From the IMG/VR virus record IMGVR_UViG_3300025132_000173, positions 1 to 31,448 of that record: a DNA stretch of 31,448 bases. One strand, written 5' to 3'. Position 1 is the first letter of the stretch, and each line of letters opens with the position of its first letter. The notes beneath the pieces were generated by a model. The model was not told the origin of the DNA, made no database searches, and saw nothing but the letters and a program-made list of their open reading frames with translations. Both the position numbers and the translations under genes were made by a program. This document shows positions 46-18,961 of this stretch, piece by piece. Origin of the DNA: a virus.

Positions 46-73
46 AAGCCGTTATTGATTAACGGCTTTTTTT
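46..73 (+). terminator. Rho-independent terminator
   Basis: A 9-bp perfect stem (46-54 pairing with 60-68, AAGCCGTTA/TAACGGCTT) with a 5-nt loop runs into a T-rich tract. It would end transcription coming from the left edge of the window and so isolates the gene at 161. Confidence 0.85.
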
Positions 74-98
74 ATTTTTCCCGATTGATAAAAAACAC

Positions 99-127
99 TT
101 GCACAATATAAGATTTTATAAGATAAT
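99..127 (+). promoter_or_regulatory. Sigma70-like promoter
   Basis: TTGCAC at 99-104 and GATAAT at 122-127 are separated by exactly 17 bp and lie between a terminator and the gene at 161. Predicted transcription start is near 134, leaving a short leader with the CGGAG ribosome site at 146-150. Found by eye from consensus matches. Confidence 0.55.
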
Positions 128-160
128 TTAATTTTATTAATTAATCGGAGTATTTAAAAC

Positions 161-496
161 ATGACTACTAAACAAATGACAAAAGAGGAATTAGAAGAAA
201 TTAAAAAGCATTTTGAAATGGCTAATAATCAAGTACGAAAGCAAGTAGACGAAAGAAACATTATTAAAGGTAAATTACAAGCTTATCAAGAAATAATAGA
301 ATTTCTAAATAAAACATCTGCTAAATATGGGGATCAGTCTTTTTATTGGATGGAAACAGCCAAAAAAGAAACAAAATATAAAAAAGATTATATAAAAAAT
401 TCTCATCACTTTGAAGGTGCTAGTTTAGAGTTAATGGGTATTACTGAAAATCTAGAAATTAAAAAAAATAAGATAGCTAATAACTTTTTTGAATAG
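161..496 (+). CDS. Small helical hypothetical protein in its own transcription unit
   Basis: 111 aa, lysine and glutamate rich, with a heptad-like helical N-terminal half (residues about 1-55) that could form a coiled coil. No catalytic motif, signal peptide or membrane segment is seen and I do not recognise the family. The ATG at 161 follows CGGAG (146-150) with 10 nt spacing. The gene has its own promoter (99-127) and is bracketed by terminators at 46-73 and 515-541, so it is transcribed apart from the packaging genes. That arrangement is typical of an early gene end or a moron-type accessory gene. Its function is unknown. Confidence 0.75.
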   Translation: MTTKQMTKEELEEIKKHFEMANNQVRKQVDERNIIKGKLQAYQEIIEFLNKTSAKYGDQSFYWMETAKKETKYKKDYIKNSHHFEGASLELMGITENLEIKKNKIANNFFE

Positions 497-2032: not shown

Positions 2033-2388
2033 AAAAGACATATATGTCTATTGTTTTTATACCGATTATTTTTTGGGCAGTTATTTATTTTACTTACACT
2101 CATGCGTGGAAGTTAGACGATTTGAATGAATGGGAGATGTGCGAAGAGATTTACTATTTGGCGACACGGTTTGCAGATATAAGGAATCATGGGTTGGTTC
2201 CTTCAGTCAAGACCAATCGAATGTTATCTTTGTTTGAGGAAGAGGTGTTACACGAGGTAGATAGGCGTGTGATGGAGTTAATGAGTATGAAATTTGATAA
2301 TCCAGAAAAATATGAAGGGATGTTAGAAAATCCTAATGCCATTGGATTACAAGTTTATGATGAATGTATGCTTGACCAAGGATTATGA
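2029..2388 (+). CDS. Membrane-anchored small hypothetical protein
   Basis: 119 aa. A lysine-rich start followed by a strongly hydrophobic stretch (residues about 6-24) predicts a signal anchor or signal peptide. The remainder is soluble, acidic and helical (EEVLHEVDRRVMELM) and has two cysteines (near 38 and 113), so it would sit on the periplasmic side. I do not recognise a family. ATGA overlaps join it to the nuclease before it and terL after it, implying coupled translation inside the packaging operon. A membrane or exported protein between nuclease and terminase is unexpected; a host-envelope or superinfection role is possible but unproven. Confidence 0.75.
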   Translation: MKKTYMSIVFIPIIFWAVIYFTYTHAWKLDDLNEWEMCEEIYYLATRFADIRNHGLVPSVKTNRMLSLFEEEVLHEVDRRVMELMSMKFDNPEKYEGMLENPNAIGLQVYDECMLDQGL

Positions 2389-3839
2389 ACGAAATAGAAG
2401 CTGATGAAAGAAAATTAAAGTTAGAATTACGACTTGCTCAACTTAATAAGATGGACAAATGCAAGGATAGTTTTCTCCCATTTGTTAAATCAATGTGGGC
2501 TGAGTTTATTGTAGGCAAACATCACCGTATTATTGCTGAAAAATTAGAAAAAATAGCAACGGGTGAGCTCAAACGATTGATTATTAATATGCCACCAAGA
2601 CATACCAAGTCAGAATTTGCTAGTTTTTTGTTTCCTGCATGGATGATCGGGCGAAAACCTAATATGAAAATCATTCAAGCGACACACACCACGGAACTTG
2701 CTGTTAATTTTGGTAGAAAAACCAAAAATTTGATGGAAAGAGACGAATATTTAGAAATTTTCCCAGAAGCAAAGCTTTCTGCGGACTCCAAAGCGGCAGG
2801 TCGATGGGACACGAGTCGTGGAGGAATGTATTATGCCGTGGGCGTTGGCTCAAACCTTGCTGGTCGTGGTGGTGATTTGATTATTATTGATGATCCGCAC
2901 TCGGAGCAAACGGCAATGTCGTCTAATGGCTTTGAAGATGCGTATGATTGGTACACGGGTGGTCCGAGACAGCGTTTACAGCCCGGTGGAGCGATTATTT
3001 TGGTAATGACACGATGGTCAGAGAAGGATTTGACGGGCAAATTGATTAAAGCACAGCTCAAAGACCCCGATGCAGACCAATGGGAAGTGGTAGAATTACC
3101 CGCTATTATGCCGTCTGGTAAACCGTGTTGGGAAGGATTCTGGTCTTTAGAGGATTTGACCAAGGTAAAAGCGTCTATTCCACCCAGTAAGTGGAACGCT
3201 CAGTATCAACAACAACCAACGGGCGATCAGGCATCTATTTTGAAAAGAGAGTGGTGGAAACGATGGACAAAACCGAATGTCCCTGCTTTGGAATACGTTA
3301 TTCAGAGTTACGATACAGCGTTTAGTAAAAGTGAGACGGCTGACTTTTCAGCAATTACAACATGGGGAGTGTTTCGACCAGAAGAAGCGGGTCCGATGGG
3401 TTTAATTCTGTTGGATGTGAAAAAAGATCGTTGGGACTTTCCAGAACTAAAGCAAGTAGCGTATGAGCAGTACAAATTTTGGGAACCAGAGACCGTGATT
3501 ATTGAAGCAAAGGCAACAGGGACTCCACTCACACATGAGTTGAGACAAATTGGTATACCTGTGGTAAACTTTACACCTAGCCGTGGAAATGATAAATTAT
3601 CAAGAGTACACAGCATTTCACCCCTATTTGAAAGTGGGATGATTTGGGCTCCAGAGGAACGATGGGCAGACGAATTGATTGAGGAGTGTGCTGCATTTCC
3701 GAATGGAGAGTATGACGACTTGGTGGATAGTACAACACAGGCACTGATGCGTTATCGTCAGGGCAATTTTGTGCAACTACCGACTGATGATTGGGATGAT
3801 GAACCTTTGAATTTGCGACCAATACAATATTACGGATAA
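2385..3839 (+). CDS. terL: Terminase large subunit
   Basis: 484 aa, the DNA packaging motor and headful/cos nuclease. The ATPase domain shows a Walker A-like PPRHTKS (70-76), Walker B LIIIDDPH (165-172) and coupling motif VMTRW (207-211). The C-terminal RNase H-like nuclease has the acidic positions SYDTAFS (D310), IIEAKATG (E374) and EYDDLVDST (D444/D445). Length and motif order fit Terminase_6/6C-type large subunits. The ATG at 2385 overlaps the preceding stop as ATGA. It docks on the portal (8086) and works with TerS (991). The gene appears complete and intact. Confidence 0.97.
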   Translation: MNEIEADERKLKLELRLAQLNKMDKCKDSFLPFVKSMWAEFIVGKHHRIIAEKLEKIATGELKRLIINMPPRHTKSEFASFLFPAWMIGRKPNMKIIQATHTTELAVNFGRKTKNLMERDEYLEIFPEAKLSADSKAAGRWDTSRGGMYYAVGVGSNLAGRGGDLIIIDDPHSEQTAMSSNGFEDAYDWYTGGPRQRLQPGGAIILVMTRWSEKDLTGKLIKAQLKDPDADQWEVVELPAIMPSGKPCWEGFWSLEDLTKVKASIPPSKWNAQYQQQPTGDQASILKREWWKRWTKPNVPALEYVIQSYDTAFSKSETADFSAITTWGVFRPEEAGPMGLILLDVKKDRWDFPELKQVAYEQYKFWEPETVIIEAKATGTPLTHELRQIGIPVVNFTPSRGNDKLSRVHSISPLFESGMIWAPEERWADELIEECAAFPNGEYDDLVDSTTQALMRYRQGNFVQLPTDDWDDEPLNLRPIQYYG

Positions 3840-6800
3840 ATGATAGTACGACCTTTAATTCCTCAACAATCCACGGTTAATGGTAAACGAAAAGTCATTT
3901 CTCGTTATGAAAACGGGGGTGAAGCAGCAAATACCGGTATAGGAAACTTTTTTCCTCATCGTGCTCTCCACGGGATTGTCAAAAAAATTATTGAAAATTT
4001 TAATAGTCCTACTTATTTAGAAACGGTTCAAGCACAAACTTTAGGTCAACCAGAAGCTAAAACCATAAAAAGATTATCTGAAGGGGTGGTTGACGAGGTT
4101 AAAAAGTTACCTCAAAATTATAAAGATTTTGTTAAAGGTTCAGCTTTACAATTTTTAGCTGCTCCGGGGGATATAGCGGATATATCTACACAAGCTGCTG
4201 ATGCAGCAACTAGAGTAACATATCCTCAACTTTTTTATGAAACAAAAATAAAACCTTCTCCTGTAGAAGTTGGTCCAGAACAACCCCCCGAAATAGCTGC
4301 TAAAAGATTACGCCAAAAAACTAATCCTTTTCCTACTCTAGAAGAAATAGAAAAATATGTAATGGATAATGGGATAATGACCTTAAATCCTGATAGCCCT
4401 TATTATTTTGCAGGTGGTTTCTCTACTCCATTTAAAGTGATTGGTGCAGCTAAAGCAGTTAAAGTGCTTAATAATTTAAGTAAAAAATATGGTCCAGATA
4501 TGAAAGAAGCATTAGCGGACGCATATATAGGTTTAACTCTTAAATATCCTGATTATTTTGGGGTTAAGTCAATAATTCCCTTTGAACCAAAAAGTACTTT
4601 AGTAGGTAGCAAAGTGAAAAGCTTTAATATTCCTGAAATAGATGAATATGAAAACGCATTAGCAAAATATGAAAAATCTCTTAAAGGAACAAAGGAACTA
4701 CGTTCTTCCGTTGCATCAGACATTTCTGAAAGAACAGGAGAAAATATTGCTACAGCTAACAGCCTACTTGATGAACTACTTGAAAAAAATCCTAATGATT
4801 TAGAAAAATTCGACAATTTTCGGTTTTTAAGTGACGAATCTAAAAGAAACTTTTTTCGTATACAAGATTTATCAAAAAAAATAAATCAAAAAGAAGCCGC
4901 TGAAAATTATGAAAAATTACGTCAAGCTAAACTAAAGTTGTATGACAAGTTAAGAGAACGAGGGGGAGAGGGAATGGAATCTAGAACCTTTCCTACTTTA
5001 GATATTGAAGCTGACCCAACTTTTAAGGATATAAAAGGAAGTGAAAGTTTAGTTGATTTTTCAGAGAGAAAATCAGAAGAGTTTACAAATCTTTTTGCAA
5101 AATACAATCAAGCTAGAAAAAACGCTCGAGAAGAGTTGGATAAACTTAAAAAACCAATGCTCGAAGCATTTGATAAAAAAACAGTAGATACACTTTATGA
5201 CAGAGGAGACCGACCGTTTGGCATGTATCCTAGTTCTTTAGAAACAGATTTTCAAAAAAAACTTGTAACAGAATTTGATAATATTAAAAAAAATTATTCA
5301 AATACAGTGCAGTCTTTGTTTGAAAATGCACCTATGCTACCTAATATTCGGTCTAAGGATCATTTTAAGTTAGCAGAAGATGGTAAAACAATCATAGCAA
5401 ATTATGATTCTCCTAAAGATTCTCCAATAAACCCCTTGGCGGGTTTTTCAGATGTAGAATTTAATATAAGAAGAAGTCTTAAAGATGTTAACAACACTTT
5501 TGATGATTTGTATTACGAAAGTATGGAAAGAGGTCTTTTAAAGGGTCAAGGTTTTGACAATGTTCTTAAGAGAGAGTTAACAAAAGATTTATTTTCTGAT
5601 AAATATTTAAAATGGCTTAATAAATCTAAATCTGACTATATTGACGCAAGTTCAGATGTGGCTTCTGTAAAAAAGTTTGAAGACCCTTTAAGAGGATTTT
5701 TTCCATCAAAAGATAAATCTCCCGATAAAATTTTAGATGCTTTATTAAAAGGAGAAATTTCTTTTTCTTCAAAAGCATTAAATTCTTTTTTTGATAACGT
5801 AACAAATACAGGAGATATAATACCAAAATTAAAAAAAGCAATAGTGGAAACTAGAGAAGTACTAGAAGATAAAAATAATTCTTTTGAAAAAGCTTTATCT
5901 CGAATGGACCCAACAAATTCTATTAACAAATTGTTGGGCGTTAACTTAAAAAATATGCCAAAAACAAAAGAGGAATTAAACGATTTATTAAATAGTTTAG
6001 AAAGTGAAATAGAAGACATATTAAAGTTTTCTAATAAAGTAAAAGACGAGGGAGAAAGTTTCTTTACGGAAGCTGTTAAAAACAAAAATATGTTAGCTTT
6101 AAATATTCTTAACAACATATATGATAACTTTAAGTTAGGAACTAGAACAGATAGGATTCAAAATTATTTTAAAATATTACCTACCATAGACTTTAAAACT
6201 AAAAAATTAGTATTTCCAGTAACACCAAAATTTACTATTACAGAAGGTAAAAAATTACGAGTAAAACCGGGTACAAACGAATTTTCTGAAAACATCGGTA
6301 TTTTTCCTGAAGACGGTGTAAAAAAAGTTCCTAAAATATATTCTCCTATTGTGGGAGAAACCACTTTTGAGCGTTTTGATGTAAAACCAGACTTTGATAT
6401 AGACCGCCATTACAGAGGTAATGTAGGTAACATTGATAATCCATATAATACCCAAGTAAGACAAGAATTAAATTTTGATATGTTTAAGGATGATGAGGGC
6501 AAAAAAGATTTTGATAAATTTCTTGAAAGATTAAAAGAAAATACTGCGACTAAGGAGTTTATAAAAAGGTATAAAAATATTTTTAATTATGAGGATATAG
6601 CTAAAGGAAAGGAGGGTTTATCGTATCAAAGAGGTATTGCTGCACAAATTCAAGATTATTTTTTAACTTCGGACGTTATAAATAAATTACCAATAGCAAT
6701 AACTCGTTATGTTCAATCTACTCCAAATAAAACATTAAAAAAACAATCTTTTGATGAAGTAATAACAAATGCTTTAAAAGATAATGAAAAAAATAAACGT

Positions 6801-7667
6801 ATATTAAAACGTATTTATAACAAACCCTTACCTACAAAGAATAAACTGCAAAATCCTAACACCAACACCGTTTGGGAAGATGTGGATGATGAAATAATAC
6901 CAAATGATTTTTTTACAAAAGATAAAATTCCTTTAGAATTTGTTCAAGACTCTGATGGCAACTATGTTCCTATGGATACAGAGCGTAATTTACCCTACAA
7001 AAGAATAACGTCTGATAATTCAGATCAAATTATTGCTACAAATAGTAAAAGAGGAGTTGTTGACATAAAAGGCTCTACCGTAGAAAAAGCAAACCAACAA
7101 TTAAAAGTACACCTTGTAGGAGCAGGGATGGAAAACTGCATAGGGACTATATGTAAAATTACTGACCCAAGTACACAAAAATTATTTACTTTAAAAGACG
7201 ATAAAAATAAACCTCTTTTTGCGGTGTTTATCAATAAAGTTAAAGGAGATGATAAAACATGGAATATAAAAAGTATTGGTTATTTTAAAGGAAAATTTAA
7301 CCATGATTTGAAAGATAAAAATTTTGTTTTTTCAGACAATAGTTTGCCTATAGAAGAAAATCAAAAAAACATGGTTAAAAATTTAGTTAATTTAGAAACC
7401 AATTTAAGAAAACAAGGGATTGAAATAGACAATTTTGGTAAGCGTCTATATGAATCATTAGGTCCAGACCTTATTACAAAATATAAAAAACTTCTCCCAG
7501 ATAGACCTCCATATGCGTACACAGGTAGTGGAAAAAATATTAGTTTTTATAAAGACGGTGGCGAGGTTCGTGGGCTAGGATCATTGAACCATATTGCGAG
7601 AAACATGTTCAAACAACCACAAGGTGTGGTAACATTGTCTTCTGTTGCAAGAAACATGTTTATATAG
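3840..7667 (+). CDS. Giant phage protein with LPD-like and PcfJ-like segments
   Basis: 1275 aa, starting directly after the terL stop with no clear Shine-Dalgarno. Near residues 95-210 the sequence has the pattern (APGDIADI, then PFPTLEEIEKYV and PYYFAGG) seen before functional domains in large polyvalent phage proteins. The middle (about 215-1000) is K/E/N-rich, largely helical, unrecognised and visibly more AT-rich than terL. Residues about 1085-1160 (ENCIGTIC, KLFTLKDDKNKPLFAVFI, IKSIGYFKGKFN) resemble the PcfJ-like domain of polyvalent proteins, with C1100 in the first motif. The tail carries KDGGEVRGLGSL and two ARNMF copies. Such proteins are often carried in the virion or act early on the host. 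Function here is unknown and the domain assignments are by eye. Confidence 0.6.
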   Translation: MIVRPLIPQQSTVNGKRKVISRYENGGEAANTGIGNFFPHRALHGIVKKIIENFNSPTYLETVQAQTLGQPEAKTIKRLSEGVVDEVKKLPQNYKDFVKGSALQFLAAPGDIADISTQAADAATRVTYPQLFYETKIKPSPVEVGPEQPPEIAAKRLRQKTNPFPTLEEIEKYVMDNGIMTLNPDSPYYFAGGFSTPFKVIGAAKAVKVLNNLSKKYGPDMKEALADAYIGLTLKYPDYFGVKSIIPFEPKSTLVGSKVKSFNIPEIDEYENALAKYEKSLKGTKELRSSVASDISERTGENIATANSLLDELLEKNPNDLEKFDNFRFLSDESKRNFFRIQDLSKKINQKEAAENYEKLRQAKLKLYDKLRERGGEGMESRTFPTLDIEADPTFKDIKGSESLVDFSERKSEEFTNLFAKYNQARKNAREELDKLKKPMLEAFDKKTVDTLYDRGDRPFGMYPSSLETDFQKKLVTEFDNIKKNYSNTVQSLFENAPMLPNIRSKDHFKLAEDGKTIIANYDSPKDSPINPLAGFSDVEFNIRRSLKDVNNTFDDLYYESMERGLLKGQGFDNVLKRELTKDLFSDKYLKWLNKSKSDYIDASSDVASVKKFEDPLRGFFPSKDKSPDKILDALLKGEISFSSKALNSFFDNVTNTGDIIPKLKKAIVETREVLEDKNNSFEKALSRMDPTNSINKLLGVNLKNMPKTKEELNDLLNSLESEIEDILKFSNKVKDEGESFFTEAVKNKNMLALNILNNIYDNFKLGTRTDRIQNYFKILPTIDFKTKKLVFPVTPKFTITEGKKLRVKPGTNEFSENIGIFPEDGVKKVPKIYSPIVGETTFERFDVKPDFDIDRHYRGNVGNIDNPYNTQVRQELNFDMFKDDEGKKDFDKFLERLKENTATKEFIKRYKNIFNYEDIAKGKEGLSYQRGIAAQIQDYFLTSDVINKLPIAITRYVQSTPNKTLKKQSFDEVITNALKDNEKNKRILKRIYNKPLPTKNKLQNPNTNTVWEDVDDEIIPNDFFTKDKIPLEFVQDSDGNYVPMDTERNLPYKRITSDNSDQIIATNSKRGVVDIKGSTVEKANQQLKVHLVGAGMENCIGTICKITDPSTQKLFTLKDDKNKPLFAVFINKVKGDDKTWNIKSIGYFKGKFNHDLKDKNFVFSDNSLPIEENQKNMVKNLVNLETNLRKQGIEIDNFGKRLYESLGPDLITKYKKLLPDRPPYAYTGSGKNISFYKDGGEVRGLGSLNHIARNMFKQPQGVVTLSSVARNMFI

Positions 7668-7699: not shown

Positions 7700-8083
7700 A
7701 TGGCAGAGTATACTAGAGGAGAAACTCGAAAAGAGTTTAAAAATAGATTAAGTAAAGTTTCTAAAGGTCTTGATTCAGGTATGAGTCAAGAAGAGATAAT
7801 GAAGTACAACCAAAAGGTTGGAAAAGACATTATAAAAGACATGAAATCGGAAGGATACGATTTTAGAACTGTTTCTGAAGTAGCGGTGGATGCTATTAAA
7901 GGAGCTCCCGGTGGCGTAAAGAAAACAGTTAAAAAAATAGTTAAAACGGTTCAGTCTCCCGAATCAAGTATGGGAATGGAGACCATAGGAAAATTTTCAA
8001 AAGGTGGTGCAGTTAAAAGTAAAAAGAAGTCTATTGATGGTATTGCTATCAAAGGACATACCCGAGCTAAAAGGAGAAGATAA
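7700..8083 (+). CDS. Small basic protein with KGG tail
   Basis: 127 aa, strongly basic. The N-terminal half is helical; the C-terminus is SKGGAVKSKKKS followed by IDGIAIKGHTRAKRRR, a tail type I associate with marine phage small proteins. AGGA upstream of the ATG at 7700 gives a reasonable ribosome site, and the portal starts 2 nt after its stop. The KGG segment closely resembles the N-terminus of the protein at 17533 (GNGGAVRSKTKS). A virion or DNA-binding role is possible given charge and position; no catalytic motif is seen. Confidence 0.7.
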   Translation: MAEYTRGETRKEFKNRLSKVSKGLDSGMSQEEIMKYNQKVGKDIIKDMKSEGYDFRTVSEVAVDAIKGAPGGVKKTVKKIVKTVQSPESSMGMETIGKFSKGGAVKSKKKSIDGIAIKGHTRAKRRR

Positions 8084-8085
8084 GT

Positions 8086-10509
8086 ATGGCAGAAAGCCCA
8101 CCACCAGTATCTTTGGTAGAAAGAGTTACTGACGATCCAAAAGTAGAGGACGCTCAAACAGATTTAGAAATTGAGATGCCTGCTGCAACATTCAAGACCG
8201 ACATTCCAGACGGTATTGAAATTGAAATGACAGAAGACGGTGGTGTAACAATTGATTTAGACCCCACTGCTGAAAATAATCCAATGACTGGAGAGTTTTA
8301 CAGAAACCTTGCAACAGAACTTGATGATAGTGAATTAGGTCGATTATCTTCTGATTTAGTCAGTGAATATGACGCAAACAAGTCTTCTCGTAAAGATTGG
8401 GAAGATGCGTATGCTAATGGATTAGAACTTCTTGGATTTAATTACGAAGAGCGTACCCAACCTTTTAGAGGAGCAACAGGGGTAACACATCCGTTGTTAG
8501 CTGAAGCTGCCACACAGTTTCAAGCTCAAGCATTTAATGAATTATTACCTCCAATGGGTCCAGTTAGGACAACCATTATGGGGACTCCAACTAAAGAGAA
8601 AGAAGAACAGGCTAAAAGAGTTCGAGAGTTTATGAATTACTACATGACAAACGTCATGGAAGAGTATACTCCAGAGTTTGACCAGATGTTATTTTATCTC
8701 CCATTGGCAGGATCAACTTTCAAGAAAGTTTATTACGATGACGGAATGGAAAGAGCAGTTAGTAAGTTTGTTCCAGCAGAAAATCTCGTTGTGCCTTATG
8801 AAGCTAATGATTTAGATACTTGCCCAAATATTACGCAAGTTGTCCGAATGGATTTAAATGAACTTCGTAAGAAACAAATTAGTGGTTTTTACAGAGATAT
8901 TCCCGTGCATCCTGCACAGAACCCAACTGATAGTGTGTCCAATGAAATTGATTATATTGATGGCGTTCAGCCTAGTAATATTGACTATGACTGTACATTG
9001 CTTGAATGTCATGTTGATTTAGACCTCAAAGGTTATGAAGATAAAGATGAGAATGGGGAACCAACAGGAATTAAAGTGCCATATGTTGTCACAGTAAGTG
9101 AAGACAATGGTCAAATTCTATCAATAAGAAGAAACTACAAGGAGGATGATCCACAAAAGAGAAAGATACAATATTTTGTGCATTACAAGTTTCTTCCCGG
9201 CTTTGGATTTTATGGATTAGGTTTAATTCATACCATTGGTGGACTCTCCCGAACTGCCACAGCAGCCTTGAGACAACTCATAGATGCAGGTACGTTATCA
9301 AATCTACCCGCAGGATTCAAAGCTCGGGGACTTCGTATTAGAGATGATAGTGACCCACTACAACCCGGTGAGTTTAGAGATGTAGACGCACCCGGTGGAG
9401 CGATTCGTGATAGCTTGATGCCATTACCATTTAAGGGACCAGATTCAACACTGTTCCAATTACTTGGTTTTGTAGTTCAGGCAGGACAAAGATTTGCAAC
9501 CATTACTGATTTAAAAGTAGGAGATGGTAATCAACAAGCAGCCGTTGGTACAACCGTTGCAATGTTAGAGCAAGGCACAAGAGTAATGAGTGCCATACAT
9601 AAGAGATTACATTATGCAATGAAGCAAGAGTTTAAACTCCTTGCAAAAGTAATGTCTGAGTATTTACCACAAGAATATCCTTACAGTATTGAAAACGCAG
9701 AGCAGTCTGTTATGGCGGCGGATTTTGATGATAGGGTAGATATTATTCCTGTTTCAAATCCAAATATATTTTCTCAAGCACAGCGTATTGCTTTAGCTCA
9801 AACACAAATGCAATTAGCTGCTCAAGCACCTGAATTACATAACATGTACGAAGCTTTCAGAAGAATGTACGAAGCATTAGGTGTCAGAGATATTGATAAG
9901 ATTCTTAGAGCACCGTCATCAGATGAGCCAATACCAAAAGACCCTGCTCAAGAAAATATTGATGCACTAGAAAACACAGAGTTAAAAGCTTTTGAAGGAC
10001 AAGACCACGATGCCCACATTATGGCACACTTAGTTTTTGGTTCTTCTCCATTAGCACTAGCTAGTCCAAAGGTAGCAATTGATTTACAAAAGCACGTTAT
10101 GGAACACGCTAAACTTAAAGCACAAGAGCAGACAATGATATTGTTTATGCAACAGAATCAAGGTCTATCTCCAACGGAAGATCAGATGATTGAGTATGAA
10201 GCAATGACAGCACAGATTATTGCTCAAGAAATGCAGAATGTGAAGATGTTAAGTGCACAGATTGCAGGTGGTGGAGAGCAAGGCGATCCTGTTGTTGCTC
10301 TAAAACAGCAAGAATTAGGTATTAAACAGCAACAAGCTCAAGCAGATGCCTTAAATGACCAAGCGAAGATTCAACTCGAAAGACAGAAGATGGCAGAAAG
10401 GTCTAGGCAGTTTGATGAAAGAATAGATACTCAAACAAATATTGCCAGAGAAAGAATACAAGCTACCAATCAAAGAGAAATGATTAAACAACGAAATAAA
10501 GGAAAATAG
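8086..10509 (+). CDS. Portal protein
   Basis: 807 aa. It forms the dodecameric ring at the capsid vertex through which TerL pumps DNA. The core has features of podovirus-type portals: NYEERTQPFRGATGVTHPLLAEAA near 118-143, PLAGSTFKKVYYD and a VPAENLVVPYEA segment, a central GLGLIHTIGGLSRTATAALRQL stretch, and a Q-rich helical C-terminus (about 735-807) that could form a barrel-like extension as in P22. The ATG at 8086 follows AAGGAGA (8071-8077). Its location after terL and before scaffold and capsid genes supports the call. Length is usual for large P22-like portals. Confidence 0.92.
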   Translation: MAESPPPVSLVERVTDDPKVEDAQTDLEIEMPAATFKTDIPDGIEIEMTEDGGVTIDLDPTAENNPMTGEFYRNLATELDDSELGRLSSDLVSEYDANKSSRKDWEDAYANGLELLGFNYEERTQPFRGATGVTHPLLAEAATQFQAQAFNELLPPMGPVRTTIMGTPTKEKEEQAKRVREFMNYYMTNVMEEYTPEFDQMLFYLPLAGSTFKKVYYDDGMERAVSKFVPAENLVVPYEANDLDTCPNITQVVRMDLNELRKKQISGFYRDIPVHPAQNPTDSVSNEIDYIDGVQPSNIDYDCTLLECHVDLDLKGYEDKDENGEPTGIKVPYVVTVSEDNGQILSIRRNYKEDDPQKRKIQYFVHYKFLPGFGFYGLGLIHTIGGLSRTATAALRQLIDAGTLSNLPAGFKARGLRIRDDSDPLQPGEFRDVDAPGGAIRDSLMPLPFKGPDSTLFQLLGFVVQAGQRFATITDLKVGDGNQQAAVGTTVAMLEQGTRVMSAIHKRLHYAMKQEFKLLAKVMSEYLPQEYPYSIENAEQSVMAADFDDRVDIIPVSNPNIFSQAQRIALAQTQMQLAAQAPELHNMYEAFRRMYEALGVRDIDKILRAPSSDEPIPKDPAQENIDALENTELKAFEGQDHDAHIMAHLVFGSSPLALASPKVAIDLQKHVMEHAKLKAQEQTMILFMQQNQGLSPTEDQMIEYEAMTAQIIAQEMQNVKMLSAQIAGGGEQGDPVVALKQQELGIKQQQAQADALNDQAKIQLERQKMAERSRQFDERIDTQTNIARERIQATNQREMIKQRNKGK

Positions 10510-18049: not shown

Positions 18050-18630
18050 CAGCCGTACCTTTTGGAACACCCCAAGAAAAGCTTATTGAGACTGAGATTC
18101 GTAGATGGTCAGCAAATGTTTTAGAAAAAAAGAACAAAGCGTTTAATAATCTTCCTGCATGTCCTTATGCACAAGCTGCATGGGATAAAGACAAAGTAGG
18201 AATTGTTTTCAAGCATGACAAAGATTATCAGTCTTTATACAGTCTTATTTCTACTTTTGATGATAGGTATGATTTAGTTATTTTAGTAGATACTGCGTAT
18301 GATGAGTATGAAAAATTCCACGAATATATAGAACAACTAAATGATGCCATATCCCAAGGGTTTTTTATTGATAAAGATATATGGTTAATGGGTTTTCACC
18401 CAGAGGGGGATGACAATGATAATTTAGAAGGGGAAAGTTTTGAACCTTTAGTTGAGGAAGAATATGGTCTTATTTTTGTTCAAAGACTAACAAAATTACA
18501 AGAATCAGCAGAAAAAATTAAGAAATTAGGGTATTATGACTGTTATAAAGATGAATATAATAGTGATGAAATTTATCAAAAACGTGAATTATTTTATAGG
18601 AGATTAAAAAATGGCAATGAGTCCTCGTAA
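18046..18630 (+). CDS. Conserved protein, possibly DUF1415-like
   Basis: 194 aa from the ATG at 18046, which overlaps the preceding stop as ATGA; an upstream in-frame ATG (18001) would be inside that gene. The pattern is IETEIRRWSANVL, NLPACPYAQAAW, an acidic strand DLVILVDT, a helix, and WLMGFHPEG followed by a VEEEYGLIFVQRLTKLQ stretch. Order and motifs (CP-x-A, then FHP) resemble DUF1415 proteins, though the match is by eye and partial. Unlike its tiny basic neighbours it is acidic and looks like a soluble globular enzyme-like fold. Its last 20 nt overlap the next gene. Confidence 0.6.
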   Translation: MTAVPFGTPQEKLIETEIRRWSANVLEKKNKAFNNLPACPYAQAAWDKDKVGIVFKHDKDYQSLYSLISTFDDRYDLVILVDTAYDEYEKFHEYIEQLNDAISQGFFIDKDIWLMGFHPEGDDNDNLEGESFEPLVEEEYGLIFVQRLTKLQESAEKIKKLGYYDCYKDEYNSDEIYQKRELFYRRLKNGNESS

Positions 18631-18961
18631 AACAATGGCTATGATGAAGTCAGGTGGTGCTGTCAAAAAAATGCGTGGTGGCGGTATGGTTAAAAAAATG
18701 CGTGGTGGTGGCATGATGAAGAAAATGAAAGCAGGTGGTGCTGTTAAAAAAATGCGTGCAGGTGGTCCAGTTAAGAAAATGCGTGGCGGAGGTATGGTTA
18801 AAAAACTTCGTGGCGGAGGTATGGTCAAGAAGATGAAAATGGGTGGTGATATCTCTTTATCAGGTAATCAAAAAAAGTTAGACGCTAATAAAAACGGAAA
18901 AATAGATAAGCAAGATTTTAAAATGTTAGCAAAGAAAAAAACTAAAAAGAATATGGCGTAA
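18611..18961 (+). CDS. Cationic 9-residue repeat protein with EF-hand loop
   Basis: 116 aa; AGGAG at 18598-18602 precedes the ATG at 18611. Residues 14-76 are seven 9-residue repeats of the form xGGxVKKMR, giving a long glycine-rich polycation with regularly placed methionine. A spacer leads to LDANKNGKIDKQDF, an EF-hand loop with D91, N93, N95, G96, I98 and D102, and a lysine-rich end. No family function is known to me. It may bind DNA, membrane or nucleoid in the virion; the single calcium loop resembles a dockerin half-site. Overlaps the previous gene by 20 nt. Confidence 0.75.
   Translation: MAMSPRKTMAMMKSGGAVKKMRGGGMVKKMRGGGMMKKMKAGGAVKKMRAGGPVKKMRGGGMVKKLRGGGMVKKMKMGGDISLSGNQKKLDANKNGKIDKQDFKMLAKKKTKKNMA
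18650..18838 (+). repeat. Seven in-frame 27-bp tandem repeats
   Basis: Each 27-bp unit encodes xGGxVKKMR with variants (MVKKLR, MMKKMK, PVKKMR). The copies are similar but not identical at DNA level, so expansion is old or under drift. Confidence 0.85.

What the first reader, a model, noticed from the sequence alone, without database searches (positions are those of the whole stretch)
3840..7667. 1275-aa protein with LPD-like and PcfJ-like segments between terL and portal
The protein fills 12% of the window, lacks a recognised family over most of its length, and is more AT-rich than terL. It has an APGDI...PT.EEI segment and a C-terminal block resembling PcfJ-like domains of polyvalent proteins. 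Such proteins can carry effector or anti-defence domains delivered with DNA. The middle 800 residues could hide enzymatic domains.
Basis: partly seen in the sequence, partly recalled or inferred. Interest (0 to 1): 0.65.

Follow-up and report, generated by a model that had tools for sequence, protein, structure and literature searches.

The report
Swappable cargo protein between phage genes
Nearly identical ocean viruses of bacteria carry, between their DNA-packaging motor and portal genes, one large protein whose two ends never change but whose middle is exchanged for unrelated modules (here a PcfJ-like one), which looks like a loading dock for proteins injected into the bacterium to beat its defences.

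Summary
The ORF is real: 3840-7667, 1275 aa, starting directly after the terL stop. It is AT-rich (GC 0.31 against 0.43 for terL) and has no Pfam, PHROG or PDB match. The C-terminal PcfJ-like call holds: profile-profile score 42.7 against at most 17.2 in 150 column shuffles. It is a diverged PcfJ, and most of the canonical polar residues are replaced. The "LPD-like" segment is a real module, but no LPD match was found.

The larger finding is outside the original claim. Phages with 98-99% identical TerL all fill this slot with a gene bracketed by the same ~37-aa N-terminal tag and ~39-aa C-terminal tag. The interior is one of at least seven modules, four or more PcfJ-like and the rest unrelated. 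An intermediate module (aa 38-244) is shuffled independently; all four combinations of two forms by two payloads exist. DNA homology breaks just beside Gly-Gly motifs in the tags. Payload dN/dS is 0.63-0.80 against 0-0.3 in neighbours. In about half of the related phages surveyed the slot is empty; others hold ART-PolyVal, GNAT or LPD23-like proteins.

Best reading: a polyvalent-type, virion-delivered effector cassette, resembling T4 internal proteins but constant at both ends. Packaging and injection are inferred, not shown. New variant of a known kind.

The parts
3840..7667 (+). Slot protein, 1275 aa: constant ends with a swappable interior
3840..3950 (+). Constant N-terminal tag, aa 1-37 (MIVRPLIPQQSTVNGKRKVISRYENGGEAANTGI...), near-identical in 11 contigs with different interiors; GG at aa 26-27
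3951..4571 (+).
4572..6716 (+). Payload, middle part, aa 245-959: predicted helical, fast-evolving (dN/dS 0.63-0.80), no recognised domain
6717..7547 (+). Payload, PcfJ-like domain, aa 960-1236
7119..7301 (+). PcfJ-like core motif, aa 1094-1154: GAGMENCIG ... LFTLKDDKNKPLFAVFI ... FKGKFN
   Evidence: hhalign alignment
7548..7664 (+). Constant C-terminal tag, aa 1237-1275 (YKDGGEVRGLGSLNHIARNMFKQPQGVVTLSSVARNMFI), with two ARNMF repeats; GG at aa 1240-1241
   Evidence: a diverged form (GGVITLADVARNMSRGPRGVASLAPVARNMNRPMVS) ends slot proteins of related phages
7700..8083 (+). Second, smaller swapped cassette: 127-aa basic protein with constant C-terminal tail (GGxVK..KKKSIDGxAIKG.T+.++); three alternative N-terminal forms not coupled to the payload type
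2385..3839 (+). terL (left border of the slot)
8086..10509 (+). Portal protein (right border of the slot)

Best explanation
The gene is an accessory cargo cassette of a marine podovirus whose TerL falls near the HTVC023P group. Its two short constant ends most likely put the protein into the virion, for example by binding scaffold or portal in the procapsid. The Gly-Gly motifs beside the homology breaks may be cleavage or hinge points. The shuffled GD...PTxEE module, which has mildly hydrophobic segments, may help passage into or through the envelope. The payload, here a long helical region plus a diverged PcfJ-like domain, is then released into the host with the DNA, where it acts against host defence or for takeover. 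Homologous recombination in the constant ends swaps payloads between co-infecting relatives, and the arms race keeps many payload types in circulation. Shown: the anatomy, constant ends, module swapping, independent shuffling, elevated dN/dS, PcfJ homology, dispensability of the slot and polyvalent domains in slot-mates. Inferred: packaging, processing, injection and the anti-defence or takeover target.
For: (1) Phages with 95-97% identical DNA on both sides lose all homology inside the gene; the break is at window ~3950-4060 (L003: 4501) and homology returns at ~7532-7557. (2) N-tag and C-tag are near-invariant in every member although interiors differ; at least seven payload types were seen. 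(3) Four-combination test at the DNA level: window=(A,1), L001=(B,1), L003=(A,2), L012=(B,2); L011 and L015 share a third form of the module with different payloads; L117 joins L013's module to L090's payload. (4) dN/dS 0.63-0.80 in the payload with dS equal to neighbours (~0.13); terL and portal 0.01-0.04; tags 0.08 and 0.22. (5) About half of surveyed relatives have terL and portal adjacent (gap 63 bp or less), so the gene is accessory; others hold different large genes. (6) Slot-mates carry ART-PolyVal (6e-8), GNAT, LPD23-like and canonical PcfJ (5e-9). (7) Phage polyvalent proteins are predicted to be packaged, lie near late genes and are fused to virion domains (PMC5512222); T4 Ip1-3 share only an N-terminal packaging leader, are injected and block restriction (PMC12373910). 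(8) GG[x][V/I] motifs are enriched in slot proteins of other phages: 78 seen, shuffles mean 31, maximum 45.
Against: No virion proteomics or functional data were found for any member. No head-maturation protease was clearly identified near the gene by PHROG, so cleavage at GG is a guess. No enzymatic domain is recognised in the window protein, and its PcfJ-like domain lacks most canonical polar residues, so the payload activity is unknown. No function for PcfJ itself was found. dN/dS hot spots rest on 3-10 synonymous changes per 100 codons.
Confidence: 0.62

Rival explanations
1. It is a structural internal or ejection protein (portal plug, ejectosome or scaffold-like); the variation reflects loose sequence constraint, not cargo function.
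For: Position between terL and portal; mostly helical middle; absent from Pfam/PHROG, as many ejection proteins are.
Against: About half of the relatives lack any gene there. Interiors are unrelated, not merely diverged, among phages with 99% identical TerL. Slot-mates carry ART, GNAT and PcfJ domains.
Confidence: 0.17
2. It is an accessory effector made late in infection (superinfection exclusion or takeover) and is never packaged; the tags serve localisation or stability.
For: Nothing here proves packaging (no call tests it). Accessory hotspots between structural genes exist in many phages (general knowledge).
Against: Two constant ends on unrelated interiors are more natural for a common loading machinery. 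Phage polyvalent proteins are predicted to be virion-borne (PMC5512222).
Confidence: 0.16
3. It is a toxin with a matching immunity gene (the small ORF 7700-8083).
For: Variable gene followed by a small variable gene, as in polymorphic toxin loci.
Against: The three forms of the small ORF do not track payload type: the MAEYT form goes with PcfJ-like, ParB-motif and L011-type payloads; the MSKKSK form with L003 and L010 payloads. It is a short basic protein with its own constant tail.
Confidence: 0.03
4. The payload diversity is an assembly artefact: co-occurring strains joined wrongly at the conserved tags.
For: Tags are conserved stretches of ~110 bp that could mislead a short-read assembler.
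Against: The same tag-payload pairs recur in contigs from different metagenomes (L015, L093, L094; L011, L096; window, L001, L002; L090, L117) with intact reading frames. The isolates HTVC023P and HTVC027P and complete genomes of 023Pt_psg01 and DSL-LC04 also differ at this slot.
Confidence: 0.02

Closest known systems
Polyvalent proteins of phages and conjugative elements (Iyer et al. 2017, PMC5512222)
   Same: Large modular protein in the late/virion gene region of a terminase-portal phage; slot-mates have ART-PolyVal, GNAT and LPD23-like domains; predicted delivery with DNA
   Different: The window protein itself has no catalogued polyvalent domain. PcfJ is not mentioned in that paper's main text. 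Constant N- and C-terminal brackets with whole-interior swapping between otherwise near-identical phages are not found in the parts of the paper read
T-even phage internal proteins Ip1-3 with capsid targeting sequence (PMC12373910, PMC9026906)
   Same: A genomic hotspot of unrelated interiors sharing a short constant leader; injected; anti-restriction
   Different: Small proteins (8-20 kDa) with an N-terminal leader only. Here a 1275-aa protein with constant sequences at both ends, a third shuffled module, and no shown packaging
PcfJ family (PF14284), incl. phage DSL-LC04 WJZ48068.1 in the same slot
   Same: Co-linear motif G..(L/M).(H/N)C(V/I)G...(I/L)F.L(R/K)...P......(K)G..N; profile score far above shuffles
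   Different: E to V, H to N, Y to I/C, R to K, T to A, E to F, Q to Y in the window protein; not detected by the Pfam model
MuF-effector fusions and P1 DdrB
   Same: Virion-associated proteins carrying effector domains (as described in PMC5512222)
   Different: No MuF or DdrB-type domain found; delivery tags here are unrelated short peptides
HTVC027P gp41-gp42, 023Pt_psg01 URG13084-URG13085, HTVC023P gp30
   Same: Genes at the same terL-portal position in phages with TerL 54-63% identical
   Different: No sequence similarity to the window protein

Membership tests
PcfJ (PF14284) | Match to the Pfam model | tested here: not met
   No hit up to E=10 in the window (also none); DSL-LC04 hits at 5e-9
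PcfJ (PF14284) | Profile-level homology over the CVG...LRD...GxxN core | tested here: met
   hhalign prob 87%, score 42.7; without DSL-LC04 80%, 38.7; 150 column shuffles of each give at most 17.2 and 21.3. With the PcfJ HMM the window-family PcfJ-like proteins (window, L001, L003, L088-L091) rank directly below L007 and L052 and above all other slot proteins
PcfJ (PF14284) | Near-invariant polar residues (E, H, R, T, E, Q) of the 12 aligned canonical members | tested here: not met
   G, C and N kept; E, H, Y, R, T, E, Q replaced in the window
PcfJ (PF14284) | Same fold | tested here: inconclusive
   Model pLDDT 66.7; best viral match is a PcfJ-like protein (prob 0.97, E 6.9e-3), no match under 1e-3
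LPD (large polyvalent-protein-associated domains) | Match of the APGDI...PTxEE segment to an LPD model | tested here: not met
   No LPD hit to the window, L001, L002, L003, L010, L011, L013, L015 or L094 at E of 1 or less
Polyvalent proteins | Two or more domains of disparate activity in one polypeptide | tested here: inconclusive
   Window: one recognised domain plus unassigned regions; slot-mate L042 (1784 aa) has GNAT, LPD23-like and HExxH-type motifs
Polyvalent proteins | Encoded among late/virion genes of a terminase-portal phage | tested here: met
   Between terL and portal
Polyvalent proteins | Presence in the virion and injection | not testable with these tools
   Needs virion proteomics and an injection assay
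T4-type internal proteins | Constant short packaging leader on unrelated mature parts in a variable locus | tested here: inconclusive
   Constant N-tag (and C-tag) on unrelated interiors is met; its packaging role is not shown
T4-type internal proteins | Sequence homology of the leader or processing by a gp21-like protease | tested here: inconclusive
   No separate maturation protease recognised among the ORFs scanned; the capsid ORF matches 'major head and protease protein' models over part of their length; leader homology to T4 not tested

The most novel reading that the evidence does not exclude
A natural plug-in loading system: a phage keeps fixed N- and C-terminal virion-loading peptides and freely exchanges payloads of about 400 to 1300 residues between them, with a separately shuffled intermediate (delivery) module. 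One gene would then supply a population-level library of injected counter-defence proteins in an abundant type of marine phage.
Probability: 0.5. Interest if true: 0.78.

Novelty: new variant of a known kind. Interest (0 to 1): 0.62.

Why it matters
[quoted passage not shown] It predicts that the constant ends are portable virion-loading tags, which is directly testable. It gives a way to find counter-defence proteins: read what lies between terL and portal, or search for the tags. It also places PcfJ, a family for which no function was found here, among the cargo of this slot in at least three phage lineages (window clade, DSL-LC04, L052).

Tried and rejected
Direct Pfam, PHROG, PDB and GenBank-phage searches with the window protein gave nothing. 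AlphaFold of the middle part was uninformative (pLDDT 42). The GD...PTxEE profile found no convincing relatives in slot proteins of other phages (best E 0.16). The PcfJ profile found no solved structure. Foldseek against PDB returned mostly GNAT acyltransferases, none significant (E 0.014 or worse): kept as a lead, not a claim. Toxin-immunity pairing with the small ORF was rejected. Assembly chimerism was considered and judged unlikely. The ARNM tag was sought in other proteins of the fetched loci and is confined to slot proteins, apart from two isolated 4-letter matches outside the tag (L052 N-terminus, L072). PcfJ literature search gave no functional paper.

Full report
Observation. ORF 3840-7667 (+) encodes 1275 aa and begins on the base after the terL stop. 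It is 12.2% of the window, GC 0.305 against 0.427 for terL and 0.392 for portal. The window is a 31,448-base linear virus record. Its TerL is 54-63% identical to phages 023Pt_psg01, HTVC027P, DSL-LC04 and HTVC023P; the phylogenetic placement rests on TerL alone. The protein itself has no family, PDB or GenBank-phage match.

The C-terminal domain. Seven homologues of the C-terminal region were aligned and compared with 12 PcfJ proteins fetched from plasmids and phages. hhalign gives probability 87% and score 42.7. Leaving out DSL-LC04, which shares the slot, it still gives 80% and 38.7. The best of 150 column shuffles reaches 17.2 and 21.3 respectively. In a separate test, an HMM of the PcfJ set ranks every window-family PcfJ-like protein with a complete C-terminus directly after DSL-LC04 and L052 and ahead of all other slot proteins. 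The AlphaFold model is of middling quality (pLDDT 66.7). Its top viral structural neighbour is a PcfJ-like protein, prob 0.97 but E 6.9e-3. So the domain is homologous to PcfJ but diverged. Gly1094, Cys1100 and Asn1154 are kept; the canonical Glu, His, Tyr, Arg, Thr, Glu and Gln are replaced. Any catalytic activity of PcfJ, if it has one, cannot be assumed here.

The cassette. Scans of IMG/VR with the protein, with TerL and with the C-terminal alignment brought in contigs whose TerL is 98-99% identical to the window's. Their slot genes all start with MIVRPLIPQQSTVNGKRKVISRYE(N/E)GGEA and, where complete, end with GGEVxGxGxLxxxARNMFKQPxGVVTLSSVARNMFI. Pairwise blastn shows high identity up to codon ~29-75 (further where the next module is shared), nothing in between for most pairs, then identity again from codon ~1231-1240, inside flanks that are 95-97% identical. 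Both homology breaks fall beside a Gly-Gly. Payload types seen: PcfJ-like 1 (window, L001, L002), PcfJ-like 2 (L003, L012, L088, L091), PcfJ-like 3 (L089), PcfJ-like 4 (L090, L117), one with a ParB-like motif QEGAHRLAA (L010), another with the same motif and a longer C-terminal part (L015, L093, L094), and one of unknown type (L011, L096). The ParB label is at motif level only.

Independent shuffling. The window and L001 share payload 1 but not this module. The window and L003 share the module but not the payload. L012 has L001's module with L003's payload. All four combinations therefore exist, at DNA identities of 87-92% over the shared parts. L011 and L015 share a third version (94%) with unrelated payloads. 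L117, an intact 1375-aa gene, joins L013's version to L090's payload.

Selection. Between window and L001 the payload has dN/dS 0.63 (aa 245-700) and 0.80 (700-960), with dS like that of neighbouring genes (~0.13); the PcfJ region has 0.28. Some 16 flanking genes compared between the window and up to four relatives have 0 to 0.29, and terL, portal and capsid mostly 0.05 or less. Windows at aa 470-569 and 845-944 reach 1.7 and 2.5, but on only 3-4 synonymous changes. Internal recombination may contribute to these values.

The slot in wider relatives. Of roughly 75 loci with both terL and portal, about 40 have the two genes adjacent (gap 63 bp or less) and about 34 have one to three genes between them; loci are partly redundant. 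Contents include ART-PolyVal proteins (L032, L034), a 1784-aa protein with GNAT and LPD23-like matches and repeated NGGSVYNQGIG-type linkers (L042), DUF6884 and DUF7178 proteins, and canonical PcfJ in DSL-LC04. In phages about 75% identical in TerL, a diverged form of the C-terminal tag closes slot proteins whose N-termini differ from the window's. Relatives of L015's payload lie just after portal in Roseobacter phage CRP-207 and in ctYwJ313.

Interpretation. The accessory nature, constant ends on unrelated interiors, module shuffling, fast evolution and polyvalent-type domains in slot-mates fit one explanation best: a virion-delivered effector cassette. The nearest precedents are polyvalent proteins (PMC5512222) and the T-even internal proteins, which share only a packaging leader and inhibit restriction enzymes after injection (PMC12373910; capsid targeting sequence, PMC9026906). 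Differences are the constant C-terminal tag, the size, and the third independently shuffled module. Virion packaging, cleavage at Gly-Gly, injection and target are inference. The 2022 study of uncultivated HTVC023P-type phages does not mention polyvalent proteins or PcfJ in its main text, and the HTVC027P transcriptome section read does not name gp41 or gp42.

Limits. Most relatives are metagenomic contigs. Library scans return only close relatives (at most 80 loci). Nothing is known of the host: one contig of the same phage type sits in a Maricaulis bin, which is weak evidence.

Noticed in passing
window 7700-8083: A second, smaller swapped cassette: three alternative N-terminal forms on one constant basic tail (GGxVK..KKKSIDGxAIKG.T+.++), independent of the neighbouring payload.
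   Followed up: partly
window 18611-18961 (array 18665-18825): Small ORF built of a 27-bp tandem repeat coding for (K)KMRGGGMVK units, resembling an array of the same basic GG-containing tails.
   Followed up: no
C-terminal domain model m61244e7524d5 (window aa 960-1232): Foldseek PDB hits are almost all GNAT acyltransferases, none significant. PcfJ may have a GNAT-like core.
   Followed up: partly
L042:11430-16784: 1784-aa slot protein with repeated NGGSVYNQGIGRL..LQDGG linkers between GNAT, HExxH-like and LPD-like segments, as if several tagged cargos were fused.
   Followed up: no
L101, L104, L105, L106: In plasmids PcfJ lies directly downstream of genes annotated as AcrIIA9-family Cas9 inhibitors, a possible functional link for PcfJ.
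   Followed up: no
L005:12263-14518 (023Pt_psg01 slot protein): Contains HEAAHAI, an HExxH-type metallopeptidase motif, unannotated in the record.
   Followed up: no
window 47-163: A ~115-bp stretch similar (76-78%) to two places in L011 and aligning to two places in L015: a duplicated small gene or repeat upstream of the packaging genes.
   Followed up: no
L117 (NZMJ01000056.1): A contig of this phage type is binned in a Maricaulis MAG; possible but weak host hint.
   Followed up: partly
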